Of a stretch of DNA of 64,000 nt, positions 5,274-23,856 are shown one piece after another. Position 1 is the stretch's first letter. Every line of letters starts with the position of its first letter. Source of the stretch: Mucilaginibacter geliditolerans (GTDB lineage Bacteria; Bacteroidota; Bacteroidia; Sphingobacteriales; Sphingobacteriaceae); NCBI RefSeq assembly GCF_014200495.1, contig NZ_JACHBY010000004.1, positions 62,001-126,000 of the forward strand, read 5' to 3'. The position numbers and the translations under genes were made by a program. Below the pieces are notes generated by a model. The model worked only from the letters and a program-made list of their open reading frames with translations. It was not told the DNA's origin and made no database searches.

Positions 5274-8200
5274 ATGAAAAGGATACTGGTTGTTCTGTTT
5301 TATATGGTTTGCATATTAAGTGTGTTCCAAACACATGCCCAACAAATTTCCCTTAAACCTGGCGTAAACCAAAGCAATACCCAGGAAACCATACCACTAC
5401 AGGGACAATGGAACTTTGCCTTAGATATTAACGACGAGGGCATCCATAAAAAATGGTTCCTGGGGAGTATGACTGATGAAATTGCCCTGCCGGGAACAAC
5501 AGATATAGCAGGCTGGGGTACGCCCGACCAATCGCCATGGATCAATTACCTGCAACGCAAGCATAAATATATAGGCGCCGCATGGTACCAAAAAACCATT
5601 GACATACCGGCCACATGGAGCGGCTATAATACTGAATTGTTTTTAGAACGGGTAAAATGGGAAAGCCGTGTTTGGGTTGACGGTAAGGAACTGAGTAAAG
5701 CCGATGATGGCCTGGTGGTATCACATACACATAATTTAGGCAAGCTAAGTCCGGGTAAACACCTGGTCAGCATAAGGATAGATAACCGGATGATACACCC
5801 TATAGGTGATAAAGGCCATAATTACACAGAGCAAACCGAAAGCATCTGGAATGGTATTGTTGGCAAGATTGAATTAAGGCGACGAAATATCATTAGCTTG
5901 AACAGGATGCGATTATTCCCTGATAATAAGGGTAAAGCAGTCTCGGTTGAACTCAATATTGATAACCCAGCCAAATTAACCAATGAGGTCAATCTTAATG
6001 TTAGTATTAAGGATGATGCGCAAAAGACAATAGGTACACTATCCATTAAAAAACAATTGGATCCCGAAACGCTGGCCAGCTACAAAATATCAATCCCGGT
6101 TACTCAATTGAAACGCTGGAGCGAATTTCAGCAGCCACTTTATACAGCAACCTGCACGGTTACCGCAGGGCAGCAAACTGAAACATCCGACCCGGTTACA
6201 TTCGGCTTCCGCGATCTTAAAACCACACGGTATAAGATAGTGGTGAACAATGTACCCGCGTTTATCCGCGGCAACCAGGAAACCCTGGACTATCCCTTAA
6301 CGGGCTATCCGCCAATGGATGTAGAGACATGGAAAAAGATATTTAAAATTTATAAATCGTACGGTTTAAACCAGGTACGTTTCCACTCGGCTTGTCCTCC
6401 TGACGCTGCTTTCCAGGCGGCTGATGAAGTGGGTATATACATGATGGTTGAACTGGTTTGGATGACCTCAAGAAATGCAATAGCCGACATACGGCCCATT
6501 AGTGCTACCATGGGCTTGCCTAAAGGTATCGGTAACCATGACCGTACCATTGATAGCTTTGTGATGAAAGAAACCCGCCGCTTATTAGACCAATACGGTA
6601 ATCATCCATCATTTTGTTTTTTTGCTTTTGGCAATGAGATGGATAATCTGAATAAACAGGTAGTGAACCAATGGCTCGGCGATCTTAAAAAAGATGATCC
6701 CCGGCATTTATATGCAGGTACAACAGCCCGGATGGTTTTACCTAATGACGATTTCCAGGAATCGCACATGGTGCCCGGCAAAGGTTTGGTAGTTAACGAA
6801 ACAGGCAATCCATCTACTATCACTAATTACGACTCAGCTTATATTTATACCAAAGTGCCGGTAATTGCACATGAGTTGGGCCAGGTCCCGGTTTATCCAT
6901 CATGGAAAGAAATAGCTAAGTATGATAAAACACCATTTCGTTTTATCAACCTTGAAAAAAGCCTGGCGTTGGCTAAGCAAAATCATATAGATATGCAGGC
7001 GGAAGATTTCAGGAAAGCATCCGGTTATTTGCAGCAACTGTTATATAAAGATGATATTGAACGTGAGTTCCGGTCACGCTACAGCGCCGGATTTAACCTT
7101 TTGGAGATGAATGACTATACCGGTCAGGGTGAAGCGCTGATTGGCTGGTTAGATGCTTTTTATGATAGTAAGGGCATTACCACCCCTGCACAGTTCCGTA
7201 ATTTTTGCAATAACGTTGTGCCGTTGGCAAAATTCCCTAAAAGAGTGTACAAAACTACCGAGGAGTTGAAAGTATCTTTTCAATTGGCCTGCAATACACA
7301 AACTGTTTTAAAAACAGGTTTAAAATGGGAGTTGGTCGCTAAAAACGATAAACATGTTATTTTATCGGGTAAATTTAATACCCGTAATTTAAGTCCGGGG
7401 ACACTTGCAGATTTTGGAACCGTAAATATAAAATTCCCTGCCATTGATAGTGCTGCAGTTTATACATTGGCACTTTCAACAACCGATGGAAAGTATGCGA
7501 ATAGCTGGAATTTCTGGGTTTTCCCGGATGATGTTATTGCTCCTTTTAACAAAAGCAATGTTAAAATATGCAATAACATAACCGATGCGATGACAATGGC
7601 CCGGCAGGGAAACAAAGTGCTGTTTATGGCAAGCGATGCGGGTGATCCTTTACAAAAAGATTATTCGGCATTTCTACCGGTATTCTGGTCAACCATATTC
7701 TTCCCCGGGGAGGGTTCGCAAACATTAAGTGCTTTGATAAGAAATGATCACCCTACGTTAAAAGGGTTCCCAACTGCCAATATGCTTGATTGGCAATGGC
7801 AAGACCTTTGCGACCACTCGAGGGGAACAGTCTTGGATGGCGAAGCACTGAACATCGATCCTATTGTTCAGCCCATTGATGATTTTCATGCCAATAAAAA
7901 GCTGGCATCACTCTTTGAAATAAAGTTTGGCAAAGGCAGCATATTGGTTTGTGATTACAACATAGTTGATGATTTGGATAACCGGCCAGCTGCAAAACAA
8001 CTGAGATATAGCTTATTGAACTACATCGGATCGGATAATTTTAAACCTGTTAAAGAGCTTAGTGAAAAATGGCTACAGGATAAATTTTACAAGGCAAAAA
8101 CAGATTCGACAAAAATCAATTCGAAAGATGAAGATAAATCGGCATTTCATTTACTGGCCGGTACCAAATCAGCTCCGGGTGAAGGTATGTGGCATAAAGA

Positions 8201-10053: not shown

Positions 10054-10860
10054 CTAAAATCTTCCAATCTCCATTGACCCGACTGGAAGACCAAATGCTT
10101 CTACTGCATTTCCAAAAGCAACAAAAGGTGGACGAGCGCCCTCTAAAATAATGAATGCACTGGTGCCAGGTGTAACAGGTCCGCCACCTCCAACCACATC
10201 AATAGCATATTCATCTAAGTCACCCTGTATTCCTTGCACGACGTTAAATTGAGCCATACCAATTTGCCCTCCTCCTGCCGGCCCCGTGCCAAAATTTAAT
10301 ATGTTAGAACCCCGAGGTACCGCAACTCGCCAATAATGCACCTCATTGAACCTTGTTCTTATTTCTATTGTTGTTGTCTGACTAGTCCCATTAAACTCAT
10401 CCGTCACACTATATATGTATTGATTCTGCTGGTTATTAACTAAAGCAGGTGGTCGTAGTTCTAAAGCTGCTCGTACCTGGTCTTTCCAATTAAGGTTGGA
10501 TAGGGAGACGCATAAACGCACCTTTAACGACACTGGTATATCATCAAAGCACACACCAGGAACAACAAGACCTATTAGAGGAAATTGCCCATTCTTACTA
10601 CCCAACATTCTATTAATAGCATATGCTAATTCTTCTAAACAGGGCTGACTCGCTAAACTATTGGGGGTGATCAAATAAGCCCAAGCTTGGGTATCTGCTG
10701 CCGAAATGTGGTTTGCTATTTGATCCCATAATCTTTGCCCGGGAATGATCGCGACCTTATCATATCGCGTTTCTATCCCAACCGCATTTAACTCTTGTAC
10801 GAGATAATCAAAGTTACCTTCATCATTATCTTTCCAAGCATAAGTAAGCCACAAACTCAT
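10054..10860 (-). CDS. TIR-domain protein with unrecognised C-terminal domain
   Basis: Residues 1-130 of 268 read as a TIR domain. It starts LWLTYAWKDND, has alternating strands and helices, and contains LITPNSLASQPCLEEL, the position of the CxxE motif of NAD-cleaving TIR domains; Glu77 would be the catalytic residue. Bacterial TIR domains commonly cleave NAD+ or make cyclic ADP-ribose signals in antiphage defence (known for Thoeris and related systems). Residues about 140-268 form a Gly-rich, beta-strand-rich domain I cannot place; it could be a sensor or oligomerisation module. There is no signal peptide. The gene stands alone with 456 bp of non-coding, repeat-containing DNA upstream, and no Thoeris partner (ThsA/SLOG) is in the window. 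NADase activity and a defence role are inferences. Confidence 0.75.
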   Translation of the reverse strand: MSLWLTYAWKDNDEGNFDYLVQELNAVGIETRYDKVAIIPGQRLWDQIANHISAADTQAWAYLITPNSLASQPCLEELAYAINRMLGSKNGQFPLIGLVVPGVCFDDIPVSLKVRLCVSLSNLNWKDQVRAALELRPPALVNNQQNQYIYSVTDEFNGTSQTTTIEIRTRFNEVHYWRVAVPRGSNILNFGTGPAGGGQIGMAQFNVVQGIQGDLDEYAIDVVGGGGPVTPGTSAFIILEGARPPFVAFGNAVEAFGLPVGSMEIGRF

Positions 10861-11316
10861 ATGTCATATCATTTTGAGTAAACATACAGTTGCTAACTAT
10901 GAAATCAAATGTAATAGTTAATTCTATCGCAAGCTGATTAGGCAGCCACAAGAATAGTTCGTAAAGGAGTTATGATTCCGAAATAGAGGAATACTTTCCC
11001 CCGCTATCCGAAGTTTTTCAACTTCGGATGACTATGCTCGTAGTCTCAATCGGACTAAACCCGAACCAGTTACAGATTGAATTAAAGGTTTTGGCTCAAA
11101 TTTAAAGGGGATCGATTTCCCCATGGGATACAAAGCACACTCTTTTCATAAACGAAAAGTCCGGCAATGTCAATAGGCGAAAGATTAGCAGGGGCCAGAA
11201 GACTTTCAGCAGCTTAAACGGAAGCCATATCAGTATTGAGAAGACAGGCAATAACTAAAATCCTCATCGTCAGTGCTTTGAATCGAACAAAGCCTTAGTT
11301 GTTAAAGGTTTTGTTC
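10861..11316. other. Gene-free stretch with a dispersed repeat copy
   Basis: I see no credible gene in these 456 bases. The middle (11004-11067) carries one copy of a repeat also found at 12239-12311. The rest is AT-rich DNA between the starts and stops of minus-strand genes. It should contain the promoter of the TIR gene, but no clear box was identified. Confidence 0.5.
11004..11067. repeat. Dispersed repeat, copy 1
   Basis: It begins CTATCCGAAGT and contains a perfect 7-bp hairpin (CCGAAGT/ACTTCGG), then GGATGACTATGCTCGTAGTC and CGGACTAAAC. It closely matches 12239-12311 and, in part, 22618-22640. It resembles the tail of a mobile or structured element, but no open frame accompanies it. 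Confidence 0.6.
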
Positions 11317-12143: not shown

Positions 12144-12235
12144 GTCAAATCAAATAGCCGTAAAAATAACTATGCATCCGAATATTAGTTAGCTTTGTAA
12201 TTACGGATAACAGGTTTAAACTATCGCTTATAGCC
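12144..12235. repeat. 92-bp direct repeat, left copy
   Basis: It matches 14603-14694 in the same orientation, with the same length and six mismatches by hand alignment (86 of 92). It contains TTAGCTTTGTAATTACGG, which includes a TAGCTTTG promoter-like box at 12190-12197. Together with the right copy it brackets the 12474-14560 cassette. Confidence 0.9.
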
Positions 12236-12238
12236 CTT

Positions 12239-12311
12239 CTATCCGAAGTTTCTAACCTCGGATGACTATCCTCGTAGTCTCCGACTACTCCCAAACGGAC
12301 TAAATTCGAAC
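12239..12311. repeat. Dispersed repeat, copy 2
   Basis: It matches 11004-11067: CTATCCGAAGTTT, GGATGACTAT, CTCGTAGTCTC and CGGACTAAA are shared. This copy has about 7 extra bases and a weaker hairpin. It lies directly beside the left 92-bp repeat, on the inner side of the cassette. Confidence 0.6.
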
Positions 12312-12473
12312 GCTTACCGAAAGAGTTTAATTGTTTAATAATTCGATCCTGTTTAAGGCCAGAGTTACTTCCTTTAGCGAGGAGGCTTCCCGGAATAATG
12401 GGCAAAAGATAAAAATCCGGCGCCTATTTTTCTTACCTTAAGGTATGTAATCGCTTGGCAAACTCAGTTATAA

Positions 12474-13034
12474 TTAGTTTTTTTTCTTAGGATCGCTGAG
12501 TTTGCACGTACAAAATATGTGCTCTTTAAAAAACCGTACAATAAAAAAGCCTTTTTTATTGCATATGACGCCAAAATTTCTTTGGATCTCCCGCATAAGT
12601 GTGGTGACTTTTGTGTCGCCAGCCTCACTTATTTCAACCCGGTACAGCCGCACGATGATGTGCTCGTTCCTCCCTTTCACTTTTACGAACCAGATAATGG
12701 TGCCGGAGAAGTGGGCTTGGCTTAACGGGGTTTGCAGTATGGATACTTTAAACGGCCGGAACTTTTTGCCGTTGCCCCATAGTTGAACAAAATAATTGCC
12801 GGTGCCGGATGCTGCCATACGGACTGACACCGGGCTTACCTGCCCATCGGTCAGCACGGTATTTTCAACGGGGCGAAGGGTATCAAGCGCCCAGGTGGAT
12901 AGGGAATCATGCCCTGGAGATAAGGGTAAATTCTCGAATTTTTCTTGCTTGATTAAAGGAGCATGTTCCAAAGAACAGCCAAAGATAGCAACGGTCAAGA
13001 TCAGGATCGTACCGGTGAGTGTTTTCCGAAACAT
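12474..13034 (-). CDS. Putative lipoprotein, last gene of four-gene cassette
   Basis: I do not recognise this 186-residue protein. It starts with a signal peptide ending in a lipobox (VAIFGC, Cys near residue 20), so it is probably an outer- or inner-membrane lipoprotein. The mature part is mixed alpha/beta with no catalytic motif seen. Residues about 95-150 read as beta strands with many Val, Ile and Arg, and the last 30 residues are unusually rich in Phe, Cys and Lys. It starts 24 nt after the 220-residue protein gene and is the last of a tight minus-strand operon. Its role is unknown; it may anchor or receive the other products. Confidence 0.65.
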   Translation of the reverse strand: MFRKTLTGTILILTVAIFGCSLEHAPLIKQEKFENLPLSPGHDSLSTWALDTLRPVENTVLTDGQVSPVSVRMAASGTGNYFVQLWGNGKKFRPFKVSILQTPLSQAHFSGTIIWFVKVKGRNEHIIVRLYRVEISEAGDTKVTTLMREIQRNFGVICNKKGFFIVRFFKEHIFCTCKLSDPKKKN

Positions 13035-13057
13035 ATGCCCCTTCGTTTAAATAGTGA

Positions 13058-13720
13058 TTAGTTATTGACTGCATATAGCTGGCCAACGGATGGCAGCGTG
13101 TCCCCATCTGCTGTCTGCAGGTGAACGTTGGGCGCCAGGAAGCGCACTGTGTTCTGGTATTGGTCCTGCTGGATGACCGCATCCATCACGATGCCGAACA
13201 GGCTTCCGGTCACGTCATAATCGTAGTCCTGGTTATAGATTGTCCCGCTGTAATTAAATAGGGATGTTTGCTGAACGATTTTCACCATCGCGGCGATGAT
13301 AGTGGCCTGGTTGGCTTCGCTCAGCCCGAAGCTATTCATGGTTTGTTTCGTATCGCTGTAAGATGCCGATGCGCCGCCCCAGCCGAAAAATCCGAAAAAG
13401 CTGGCGCCGCCGGAAACCTCCGTTTTGGATAGCTCCGAATAAGATTGTTGGTACGAGGCATCCATCATAGACTTAATCAGGTTACTCAGCGTTTGAACAT
13501 CGTCCGGTGTGACGCACATCAGTTTGAGCTGGAAGTTGACATCGATTTGCCCATGGGCCGGGACAGTGTAGATGAGGCCGGTCACTTGACCCTGCCCGTA
13601 ACTGTTGATGGCCACCCCGCTTTGGGTCGACCCACCGCCCAGCGAGGTCAGTTTTGGAAGGATAAATTTTGATTTCCGGAGTCCTTCAACGGAGGTTTTG
13701 GTGCTTTCGTAAGTTTTCAT
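13058..13720 (-). CDS. Unrecognised 220-residue protein with Gly/aromatic-rich segment
   Basis: The start at 13720 (MKTYESTKTS) is chosen because the longer frame to 13870 would overlap the upstream gene by more than 100 nt and adds a basic, composition-odd extension. No signal peptide is present. Residues 1-75 are probably beta-rich, 73-102 helical, and 103-122 form a striking segment (SGGASFFGFFGWGGASAS). This is followed by a helix (132-152) and a beta-rich end with many Tyr, Asn and Asp. The middle could insert into a membrane or pack against another subunit; that is a guess. It lies between a membrane protein and a lipoprotein in an operon, and its DNA is GC-richer than neighbours (39 of 60 bases in 13081-13140). 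The function is unknown. Confidence 0.7.
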   Translation of the reverse strand: MKTYESTKTSVEGLRKSKFILPKLTSLGGGSTQSGVAINSYGQGQVTGLIYTVPAHGQIDVNFQLKLMCVTPDDVQTLSNLIKSMMDASYQQSYSELSKTEVSGGASFFGFFGWGGASASYSDTKQTMNSFGLSEANQATIIAAMVKIVQQTSLFNYSGTIYNQDYDYDVTGSLFGIVMDAVIQQDQYQNTVRFLAPNVHLQTADGDTLPSVGQLYAVNN

Positions 13721-13757
13721 AATTGTTTTTTTTGTTTTTGTATGATGAATGAAGCTA

Positions 13758-14219
13758 TTAATGAATTGAACCTGTTTTCTTTTTTTCCTCCAGGGCAGCG
13801 AATTGACTAGCGCCCGCCAGCTTTTCATTCTGGATTTTTTGGGTGTTGAGGGTCTTGACCGCCTGAACATACCCCAGTAAACTTGTCCAGAATGCCGAGC
13901 CCCCGCTGGCTAGCAGGCCGATGATCCATATCGGGATAAGCGTTTGCGGCGGCCCGATGTCACAGGAAGCAAAAGGGTCGAACTTCCCATCTTTTAAAAA
14001 GCTCGCGGTTAGCCATGCGGCCAGGAAAGCAATGATCATGACTAAAATCTGCCGTCTTTTTTCAGCGCCTTCAACGGGGAGCGGCGTAACAGTGGCCGGA
14101 TCATTGGTTTTACTGGCCAGGCCAGGGAATAACGTTTTGAGAAACGTAACCAGTCTTTCACTGGCGAGACTGACCGCTAAAACGATAGCAGCCAGTTTTG
14201 CGATAATGGTGATTTCCAT
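13758..14219 (-). CDS. Small three-helix membrane protein of unknown function
   Basis: The 153-residue protein has three hydrophobic segments: about 5-28, 58-76 and 91-116. A loop rich in Pro, Thr and Asp follows the first (about 34-55), and a charged C-terminal tail probably forms a helix (about 117-153). The first segment carries the SERLV pattern, and the third ends in FWTSLLGYVQAVK. Size and topology resemble phage holin-like or small scaffold membrane proteins, but I cannot assign a family. It lies 26 nt after the LuxR-type regulator and 37 nt before the 220-residue protein gene in the same operon. Confidence 0.65.
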   Translation of the reverse strand: MEITIIAKLAAIVLAVSLASERLVTFLKTLFPGLASKTNDPATVTPLPVEGAEKRRQILVMIIAFLAAWLTASFLKDGKFDPFASCDIGPPQTLIPIWIIGLLASGGSAFWTSLLGYVQAVKTLNTQKIQNEKLAGASQFAALEEKKKTGSIH

Positions 14220-14245
14220 AATGTGGCTTTTAATTTTTTACTAAA

Positions 14246-14560
14246 TTACCAGCCGGCAATATGGGCTAACAGGGTGAAATAGCCCTTTCTGAGTGGGTGT
14301 TTTTGCGGTATTTTGCGCCAGAACCGAAAGAGGTCGTTATGAATGGCATAAAGGGCGATGCTAGTCCGCGATTTTAGTTGGAGTCTGCTGAAAATTAATT
14401 CACGGTAATTGTCGACGGTTCTGAGGCTGATAATCATTTCGTCAGCAATTTCTTTATAGGTCAGTTCAGGGCAGCATAACTTCATAAACTCAAGCTCTTT
14501 CCTGGACAACAGTTGCTGCACTTTGATTTCTCTACTAATGTTTACTGTTTTCGCTGGCAT
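14246..14560 (-). CDS. LuxR/GerE-type helix-turn-helix regulator, no receiver domain
   Basis: This 104-residue protein contains a complete GerE/LuxR DNA-binding domain at about residues 16-80: LLSRKELEFMKLCC, then LTYKEIADEM and SLRTVDNYRELIFSRL, followed by KSRTSIALYAI. There is no receiver or ligand-binding domain, so it is a stand-alone transcription factor. As first gene of the four-gene minus-strand cassette it probably controls its own operon. The right 92-bp repeat lies 43-134 nt upstream of its start and would include its promoter region. The C-terminal 25 residues are basic. Confidence 0.8.
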   Translation of the reverse strand: MPAKTVNISREIKVQQLLSRKELEFMKLCCPELTYKEIADEMIISLRTVDNYRELIFSRLQLKSRTSIALYAIHNDLFRFWRKIPQKHPLRKGYFTLLAHIAGW

Positions 14561-14602
14561 GGAACATCATGGTCTTATATGCCCTAAATTAATCGTTTGG
14601 TA

Positions 14603-14694
14603 GTCAAATCAAATAGCTGTAAAAACAACTATGCATTCGAATATTAGTTAGCTTTGTAATTACGGCTAACAGGTTTTAACTACCGCTTATAGCC
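14603..14694. repeat. 92-bp direct repeat, right copy
   Basis: It matches 12144-12235 in the same orientation with six mismatches by hand alignment. It lies in the divergent region between the LuxR-type gene and the retropepsin-like gene and contains a plus-strand TAGCTTTG box. Confidence 0.9.
14649..14656 (+). promoter_or_regulatory. Bacteroidota-type -7 box upstream of retropepsin-like gene
   Basis: TAGCTTTG fits the TAnnTTTG consensus of the primary sigma factor in this phylum and lies 75 nt before the ATG at 14732. No TTG -33 box is found at the usual 19-20 nt spacing, so strength is uncertain. The same box occurs in the left repeat copy at 12190. Confidence 0.4.
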
Positions 14695-14731: not shown

Positions 14732-15895
14732 ATGAAGTATATTTTAGCCCTATTATTAGCTCTGATTTCATTTCGCGGTTCATCTCAAAATAAATTACCG
14801 GTTATCAATGCTAGTTCCAGCAAGGCTAAAATATATGAACAGGATAATCCTGTATCGAACTGGAATATCAGCCCCAAGATAAAACTGGATATTTTCACAA
14901 CCGGAAAACTGATCAAATCAAAAACCGTAAAGTTCAAAACAGATATTGATTCGGTCAGCTTCAGAATAGGGCCCGGACAGCAAAAAGATTTTATTGTCCT
15001 GCTCAATGGCAAAGATTCCTGTCTCACCAGGATTCAAAGTCCAGAGGTGAAAAACTATAGCAAACTGCCGGTAGAAATTCACGATACTATTCCCTTTTTT
15101 GTAAATCGATTCAATACTAACTTTTTACCGGTTGTCTTTAATAACGCTGATACGCTCATACTGAATTTCGATACAGGCGCAACCGATATTTCATTCACGA
15201 ATGATGCACTTAAACAAAAGGTCAAATCTCATCCCGAACTTTATAACACCCTCTACGGTATCAAGATTGGACACCAAAATTATAAAACTAAAATTTATGA
15301 TATACAGCTCGCCGGGAACGAAACAGATGGTCTGCTAGGATGGGATCTGTTTGACGGAATGATTGTAGAACTTGATTATGACCACAATCAGCTGATCGTG
15401 CACTCTAAAATGCCAAAGCAGATCTTACATGACAGCAAGTATTCGAAATTTAAGATACGTTATATTAAAAACAGACCCTTTATAGAAAGTGAAATTTCAC
15501 AAAGTGGAATAAAGAGTAAAGGCTGGTTTCTCTTTGACCTGGGTTACCAAAGAACAATTATGCTGGATAACGATCTGCTGCGGGAGGCCCGGTTTCCAAC
15601 TGAAAAAATGGAGGTTATCAAAAAAGTTATTATGCACGGAACAAGAGGTAACGAGATACCCGTCATCACGGCAAACCTGGAAACGTTAAAACTCGGGAAT
15701 TTTGAGCTAAAAGATGTGCCCGCTCAAATCATCGAACAAAACAAGCCGATGAGGGGCGTCAATATCCATTTCTTAGGAAACGACGTTTTGAAAAGGTTCA
15801 ATACGGTGTTGGACTTCCAGAAAAACGAAATTTATCTAAAACCAAATCATCTTTATGGCACTGGATATGCAGACCAGAAAAAAAGCGGTGCATGA
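14732..15895 (+). CDS. Exported retropepsin-like aspartic protease family protein
   Basis: The ATG at 14732 opens a signal peptide (MKYILALLLALISFRGSSQ). The ATG 24 nt upstream would only add eight residues to it. The mature part has two lobes. The first holds the aspartyl protease motif FDTGATD (near residue 150), followed by a hydrophobic flap-like region and GLLGWDLFDGM. The second lobe has FDLGYQ in the equivalent place and FLGNDVLKRF near the end. Bacteroidota have many such exported single-chain aspartic protease homologues with poorly known substrates. The second lobe lacks the Thr of DTG, so activity may need dimerisation or may be absent. It is divergent from the cassette. Confidence 0.75.
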   Translation: MKYILALLLALISFRGSSQNKLPVINASSSKAKIYEQDNPVSNWNISPKIKLDIFTTGKLIKSKTVKFKTDIDSVSFRIGPGQQKDFIVLLNGKDSCLTRIQSPEVKNYSKLPVEIHDTIPFFVNRFNTNFLPVVFNNADTLILNFDTGATDISFTNDALKQKVKSHPELYNTLYGIKIGHQNYKTKIYDIQLAGNETDGLLGWDLFDGMIVELDYDHNQLIVHSKMPKQILHDSKYSKFKIRYIKNRPFIESEISQSGIKSKGWFLFDLGYQRTIMLDNDLLREARFPTEKMEVIKKVIMHGTRGNEIPVITANLETLKLGNFELKDVPAQIIEQNKPMRGVNIHFLGNDVLKRFNTVLDFQKNEIYLKPNHLYGTGYADQKKSGA

Positions 15896-23687: not shown

Positions 23688-23760
<73 letters not shown>

Positions 23761-23856
23761 CTATTTTTTTATTTGGTATTACATTACGGGCATAACTCCG
23801 AAACGTTTTATTATTTAACTATTGCAATAGCCTTATCACGCTATTAGAAAACGAAA

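What the first reader, a model, noticed from the sequence alone, without database searches (positions are those of the whole stretch)
12144..14694. Four-gene cassette between 92-bp direct repeats: candidate undescribed system
A tight minus-strand operon (gaps of 26, 37 and 23 nt) encodes a stand-alone LuxR-type regulator, a three-helix membrane protein, a 220-residue protein with a Gly/Phe/Trp-rich segment, and a lipoprotein. None of the last three matches a family I know. The operon is bracketed by 92-bp direct repeats and is GC-richer than its surroundings by spot counts (39 of 60 bases at 13081-13140 against 20 of 60 at 15061-15120). The set could be a membrane-acting device: pore or holin-like protein, soluble partner and lipoprotein under its own regulator. 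Those roles are inferred.
Basis: partly seen in the sequence, partly recalled or inferred. Interest (0 to 1): 0.75.

Follow-up and report, generated by a model that had tools for sequence, protein, structure and literature searches.

The report
Modular membrane cassette, swappable effector-like partner
A four-gene bacterial unit, built around a small three-helix membrane protein whose relatives sit beside changing partner genes in other Bacteroidota, here carries a protein of unknown function that has spread between phyla and elsewhere often sits beside a protease gene; what the unit does is not known.

Summary
In detail: four minus-strand genes (LuxR-type HTH, three-helix membrane protein, 220-aa protein, exported lipoprotein-like protein; gaps 26, 37, 23 nt) lie between 92-bp direct repeats (two copies in the genome) in a GC-rich island. 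The four families together were found nowhere else, but the layout recurs. Relatives of the three-helix (3TM) protein occur in other Bacteroidota; at 11 of 14 other loci an exported protein follows on the same strand (background 13 of 122 genes), and at 5 loci one or two signal-less soluble genes come first. A LuxR-type regulator is near in 9 of 14. Partners change between loci. The 220-aa protein is one such partner: its family is patchy across Bacteroidota, Pseudomonadota and Acidobacteriota, matches no library model significantly, and at 9 of 18 loci is followed directly by a peptidase gene (trypsin-like 8, C58 1). Best reading: a LuxR-controlled membrane protein serving a signal-less effector and an envelope partner, partly acquired horizontally. 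The mechanism is inferred, and the 3TM/220-aa link rests on this locus alone. Structure prediction was never available (25 tries). No phage or holin relative was found.

The parts
14246..14560 (-). Stand-alone LuxR/GerE-type HTH protein, 104 aa (P0004); likely transcriptional regulator of the unit
   Evidence: Pfam GerE E 5e-12, above cut-off; 57-64% identical over 60-77 aa to the HTH of response regulators near the 3TM gene in L039, L040, L041, 53% in L038; no tblastn match at E 0.01 in L042-L044, L055
13758..14219 (-). Three-helix (3TM) membrane protein, 153 aa (P0002); hub of the unit
   Evidence: Three hydrophobic segments; relatives in 7 of 198 other relatives, 10 of 398 others of the family, two of them short partial matches, 8 of 374 others of the phylum, three of them weak; conserved SxAxERL and SGGSxFW-like motifs
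13058..13720 (-). 220-aa signal-less protein with Gly/aromatic segment (P0001); effector-like cargo, member of a cross-phylum family
   Evidence: Family of 20 aligned rows; tree; peptidase gene directly downstream at 9 of 18 other loci
12474..13034 (-). 186-aa exported, probably lipoprotein-like protein (P0003); orphan; AT-rich 3' end
   Evidence: Hydrophobic N-terminus ending IFGC; no relative in 198 other genomes, none in plasmids, no Pfam match; GC 0.33 for 12474-12600
14603..14694 (.). Right copy of the 92-bp direct repeat, between the regulator and the rightward aspartyl-protease-like gene; 25 nt of it resembles the region upstream of that gene's homologue in one related genome
   Evidence: (E 0.004)
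12144..12235 (.). Left copy of the 92-bp direct repeat, downstream of the operon

Best explanation
The four genes are one instance of a modular Bacteroidota envelope unit whose constant part is the three-helix inner-membrane protein (3TM), usually near a LuxR-type regulator. The 3TM gene is followed by a changing signal-less protein (here the 220-aa protein) and/or a changing exported protein (here the lipoprotein-like one). Most likely mechanism: on a signal read by the regulator the set is made; the 3TM protein holds or lets through the signal-less protein at the inner membrane, and the exported protein receives, guides or neutralises it on the outer side. The 220-aa protein would be the effector. 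Shown: operon layout, recurrence of the layout with different partners, presence of LuxR-type regulators, patchy cross-phylum spread of the 220-aa family, and its frequent pairing with peptidases elsewhere. Inferred: that the set is co-regulated, that the 3TM protein anchors or passes the effector, that the 220-aa protein acts on membranes or is controlled by proteolysis, and that the cassette arrived as a block.
For: 3TM relatives in genus, family and phylum. At 14 other loci an exported protein lies within the next three same-strand genes in 11, against 13 of 122 other genes of the same loci (nominal p 5e-9, loci taken as independent); by eye L110 and L112 have one too. One or two signal-less genes follow the 3TM gene first in L038, L044, L058, L113 (all among the 11) and L110, in L058 a trypsin-like peptidase with H, D and GDSG motifs, below Pfam's cut-off. 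In L039-L042 the 3TM protein has an extra C-terminal stretch of about 100 residues. LuxR-type regulators: divergent kinase + response regulator in L039-L044 and L055, a response regulator near L038, a stand-alone GerE protein in L113: 9 of 14. 220-aa family: same-strand peptidase gene directly downstream in 7 of 10 Chryseobacterium loci, Agrobacterium L023 and Motilimonas L029. GC and GC3 outlier. Nearest relative from Acidobacteriota, 62% identity, support 86/89.
Against: The 3TM gene stands without such partners in L111, and L110 and L112 fail my rule. The 14 loci are not independent: four share one exported family and four another (L112 among the latter), and several are one genus. L058 and L114 are 3TM relatives by profile only: tblastn with P0002 did not find them at E 0.01; profile E 1.6e-7 and 1.1e-10. 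The 220-aa family was not found with the 3TM protein anywhere else, so their link rests on this one locus. No protease lies in the cassette. GC of the 3TM gene is near its surroundings at most other loci. Nothing shows transport, pore formation or toxicity, and the hydropathy of the 220-aa protein is below that of a membrane helix.
Confidence: 0.4

Rival explanations
1. The 220-aa family is a protease-controlled membrane-acting (gasdermin-like in logic) or otherwise protease-activated effector of bacterial conflict; in this genome the 3TM protein or the lipoprotein-like protein took the place of the protease as its keeper or as immunity.
For: Trypsin-like peptidase gene directly downstream at 8 of 18 loci in two phyla and a C58 peptidase at a ninth; two sedolisin-type genes 0.7 and 1.8 kb from the Acidicapsa copy. 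Conflict-type genes near single copies: MmeI restriction enzyme 1.6 kb away (Massilia), HNH (C. cheonjiense), Imm49 (Motilimonas), Abi and VapBC about 4 kb away on Rhizobium plasmids, a TIR gene 1.3 kb left of the window's left repeat. No signal peptide by hydropathy; conserved Gly/aromatic segment.
Against: Seven of the nine peptidase pairs are one genus. Only two of the eight trypsin-like proteins were compared with Pfam, and both score below its cut-off; the other six are 68-96% identical to one of them. No PADLOC match for 20 members, no fold available; genes near single copies may be chance and were not tested against a background.
Confidence: 0.25
2. An envelope-stress or nutrient-responsive regulon: LuxR regulator, membrane protein and exported proteins of housekeeping kind, with the 220-aa gene a passenger.
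For: In L039-L044 and L055 the 3TM gene sits opposite a set of small protein, membrane protein, kinase and response regulator.
Against: Partner genes are variable, and peptidase or tyrosinase genes adjoin some 3TM genes; the distribution is sporadic (10 of 398 other family members).
Confidence: 0.25
3. A chance cluster: separately acquired genes landed together beside a promoter-containing repeat.
For: The four families were found together nowhere else; the lipoprotein-like gene is an orphan with an AT-rich end; GC differs gene by gene (P0004 0.435, P0003 0.46, P0002 0.50, P0001 0.52).
Against: Tight spacing and the match to the recurring 3TM layout.
Confidence: 0.1

Closest known systems
Conflict systems with a constant component and variable partners (EACC1, NucA-trypsin; PMC8195603, passages seen; PMC7159879, search listings only)
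   Same: A constant gene beside changing partners, some trypsin-like.
   Different: The constant part here is a three-helix membrane protein; the only Pfam domain above cut-off in the four proteins is GerE.
Bacterial gasdermin + protease pairs (features recalled; PMC9079055 seen in the search listing only)
   Same: A signal-less protein of about 220 aa beside a peptidase gene in several genomes (the 220-aa family outside the window).
   Different: No sequence match was found, the fold is untested, and there is no protease inside this cassette.
Phage holins with three helices (features recalled)
   Same: Three hydrophobic segments and a charged C-terminus in 153 aa.
   Different: No phage or viral-contig relative; no holin model match better than E 0.31.

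Membership tests
LuxR/GerE-type regulators | GerE HTH domain above the curated cut-off | tested here: met
   PF00196 45.7 bits against cut-off 23.5; no receiver or autoinducer domain listed
3TM family (defined here) | Three hydrophobic segments, SxAxERL motif in the first and SGGSxFW-like motif in the third | tested here: met
3TM modular layout (defined here) | Exported protein downstream on the same strand, optionally after signal-less genes | tested here: met
   P0001 scored without signal, P0003 with; 11 of 14 other loci by rule
Phage holin | Relatives in phages or a holin model match | tested here: not met
   (Holin_SPP1 E 0.31 in 1 of 10 members)
Bacterial gasdermin | Sequence/profile match | tested here: inconclusive
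   No significant Pfam, PADLOC or PDB-sequence match; I did not check whether these libraries hold a gasdermin model
Bacterial gasdermin | Adjacent activating protease | tested here: not met
   None inside the cassette; the divergent aspartyl-protease-like gene at 14732 occurs in relatives without the cassette. A peptidase gene adjoins 9 of 18 relatives elsewhere
Bacterial gasdermin | Gasdermin fold, autoinhibition, lipid modification | not tested
   Structure prediction was busy at all 25 tries (first, last)
Integrative mobile element with att repeats | Recombinase gene within or next to the repeats | tested here: not met
   None recognised when reading the ORFs of 9-19 kb; not every ORF was searched by profile
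Integrative mobile element with att repeats | Empty site with one repeat copy in a relative | tested here: inconclusive
   The flanking protease-like gene has different neighbours in 7 relatives; one 25-nt partial match

The most novel reading that the evidence does not exclude
The 3TM family defines an undescribed Bacteroidota trans-envelope system in which a three-helix inner-membrane protein and an outer-membrane or lipoprotein partner handle interchangeable signal-less effectors (a trypsin-like peptidase, small soluble proteins, the 220-aa family). The 220-aa family is itself a new protease-linked effector fold that moves between phyla.
Probability: 0.2. Interest if true: 0.8.

Novelty: new variant of a known kind. 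Interest (0 to 1): 0.5.

Why it matters
If the reading is right, a single constant membrane protein marks a set of interchangeable effector cassettes in Bacteroidota that the family libraries searched here do not name, and the 220-aa family gives a protease-linked effector candidate found in three phyla. Both can be tested with simple expression and deletion experiments.

Tried and rejected
Phage or holin origin of the 3TM protein: no match in phages, viral contigs or plasmids. The 220-aa family was not found in phages or viral contigs. Same four genes elsewhere: not found. Cassette as a repeat-rich genome feature: the 92-bp repeat has only these two copies; a different ~47-bp hairpin-like repeat near 11010 and 12240 is dispersed in the genome. 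Homology among the partners: hhalign between five sets (three exported families, the extra C-terminal stretch of L039-L042, the 220-aa family) and ten single proteins gave one pair above 40% probability (exported family of L058/L114 with the L043 protein, 89.6%), none with the 220-aa family or P0003. Integrase-like segment in P0003: a 60-aa tblastn match inside an integrase-like ORF of L110 (E 3e-4, filter off) was not supported by Pfam and I treat it as chance. Promoter and terminator scan: no more sites than in shuffles. A stable fold of the repeat as single-stranded DNA: z -0.8, not unusual. Literature: searches listed nothing that I recognised as describing the 3TM layout or the 220-aa family; this covers only the open-licence library, and apart from passages of one paper I saw listings only. 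3TM rows dropped before counting: G781 and G754 (22-30-residue matches, perhaps remnants, beside the same regulator set), G368, G359, G459 (E 2e-4 to 5e-4, two of them inside ~465-aa proteins); the window itself is not among the 14.
Full report
WHAT IS THERE. The window is part of a 6.5-Mb genome in 26 contigs. The genus is not named by the tools; from recall its gene content looks like Mucilaginibacter or a close relative. The repeat has two copies in the genome; in 149 genus genomes the best match outside it is 41 nt at E 5e-4. The GC-rich core is exceptional for the window (0.3% of 1500-bp stretches reach it), and the 220-aa gene has a GC3 of 0.652, above every listed window ORF. Composition is uneven: regulator 0.435, 3TM 0.50, 220-aa 0.52, lipoprotein-like 0.46 with an AT-rich end.

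THE REGULATOR. P0004 is a bare GerE helix-turn-helix. Its closest counterparts among the 3TM loci first fetched are the output domains of LuxR-type response regulators in L039-L041 (57-64% identity over 60-77 aa) and L038 (53%); those of L042-L044 and L055 gave no match at E 0.01 and are only 30-34% identical in the alignment for L042-L044. It could be a response regulator without its receiver, but I did not compare it with the other regulators of the genome.

THE THREE-HELIX PROTEIN. P0002 has no significant library match. Relatives were found in 7 of 198 other relatives, 10 of 398 other family members and 8 of 374 other genomes of the phylum; the three samples overlap. I dropped five weak or partial hits (see Tried and rejected) and examined 14 loci: L038-L044, L055, L058, L110-L114. 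L058 and L114 are relatives by profile only. By a fixed rule an exported protein lies within the next three same-strand genes in 11 of 14, against 13 of 122 other genes of the same loci. The 14 are not independent: four share one exported family (L039-L042) and four another (L038, L055, L110, L112). L110 (its exported gene starts inside the called ORF) and L112 (1.1 kb away) have one by eye; L111 has none. In L038, L044, L058, L110 and L113 one or two signal-less genes come first. L055 has an ORF of doubtful coding status in that place that I did not count. In L058 the signal-less gene is a trypsin-like peptidase with H, D and GDSG motifs, below Pfam's cut-off. Neighbours upstream of the 3TM gene include an astacin (L112, with a 106-aa ORF between) and a tyrosinase (L113), both above cut-off. 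Several exported partners end in an aromatic strand as outer-membrane barrels do (inference), while L044 has a lipoprotein by my rule. A divergent set of small protein, membrane protein, kinase and LuxR-type regulator faces the 3TM gene in L039-L044 and L055; L038 has a response regulator beyond its partner genes; L113 has a stand-alone GerE protein. So a LuxR-type regulator is close in 9 of 14. The window cassette fits this plan: GerE protein, 3TM, signal-less protein, exported protein.

THE 220-AA PROTEIN. Besides the own genome, one of 148 relatives and one of 394 phylum genomes carry a relative, the same genome in both (G110). A first pattern scan of the GTDB-species collection with the window protein alone found none; the scan with alignment A2 gave 18 loci, and the plasmid collection 16 Rhizobium records. 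Two subfamilies appear: A (window, Acidicapsa, Rhizobium, two tandem copies in Motilimonas) and B (ten Chryseobacterium loci, a Bacteroidales MAG, Agrobacterium, Jiella, Massilia, Rhizobium). The window protein pairs with the acidobacterial one (62% identity, support 86/89); the tree tool warned of long branches, so details of the deeper joins are unsure. The patchy cross-phylum spread, and GC unlike the surroundings in 3 of 6 loci checked (L012, L025, L027), point to horizontal transfer. A peptidase gene follows directly on the same strand at 9 of the 18 loci: trypsin-like in Chryseobacterium L015-L021 (gaps 101-345 nt) and Agrobacterium L023 (93 nt; 25% identical to the L015 one), and Peptidase C58 in Motilimonas L029 (15 nt). 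Of the trypsin-like ones only L015 and L023 were compared with Pfam (Trypsin_2 E 7e-4 and 4e-4, below cut-off); the others are 68-96% identical to L015. The remaining nine (L012, L013, L014, L022, L024-L028) show none directly downstream; Acidicapsa L026 has sedolisin-type genes 0.7 kb upstream and 1.8 kb downstream. Within Chryseobacterium the pair persists while the wider flanks differ between L015-L016/L019-L021 and L017-L018. Invariant residues of the family are mostly Gly; S120, N163 and R193 are the polar ones, which does not suggest a known catalytic set to me. The Gly/aromatic segment is conserved, but its hydropathy is too low for an ordinary membrane helix. Pfam and PADLOC were searched with 20 members and the PDB sequences with the family profile, all without a significant match; NCBIfam and PHROGs were searched with the window protein only.

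THE LIPOPROTEIN-LIKE PROTEIN. P0003 has no relative in 198 other genomes or in plasmids, and no significant library or PDB-sequence match.

THE REPEATS. I recognised no recombinase among the ORFs of 9-19 kb. The rightward neighbour (14732-15895) is an aspartyl-protease-like gene (Asp_protease_2 above cut-off). Its closest homologues sit in different surroundings in seven relatives, none with the cassette. In one of them (L096) 25 nt upstream of the gene resembles the repeat (E 0.004). This hints that the right copy is the native upstream region and that the left copy came with, or was made by, the insertion. The evidence is weak.

VERDICT. The unit is real and fits a recurring, partner-swapping layout around an unnamed three-helix membrane protein. 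The particular partner here is a patchily distributed, peptidase-linked family of unknown fold. Whether the 3TM protein anchors, passes or restrains that partner is inference. The missing structure prediction is the main gap: the service was full at every one of 25 tries.

Noticed in passing
window 10054-10860 (-): TIR-domain protein (TIR_2 E 7e-10, above cut-off) with a C-terminal stretch matched by no listed family, 1.3 kb from the left repeat.
   Followed up: no
window 10999-11066 and 12239-12281: A ~47-bp hairpin-like repeat dispersed in the genome (11 matches to the query at E up to 1, itself included, several of them weak); one copy abuts the left 92-bp repeat.
   Followed up: partly
window 23710-23770: A roughly 60-bp direct repeat with 209-nt spacing (shared 20-mers).
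   Followed up: no
L006 and L027 (Rhizobium): Two members of the 220-aa family in tandem, separated by a ~92-aa protein with a HYH...HIFFG end; the second copy is frame-broken.
   Followed up: partly
L029 5439-7370 and 9222-9842 (Motilimonas eburnea): Imm49-type protein and a C58 peptidase flank two tandem copies of the 220-aa family.
   Followed up: partly
L056 and L057 near 7645-7876: 22-30-residue 3TM-like matches, perhaps remnants, beside the same kinase/LuxR regulator set.
   Followed up: no
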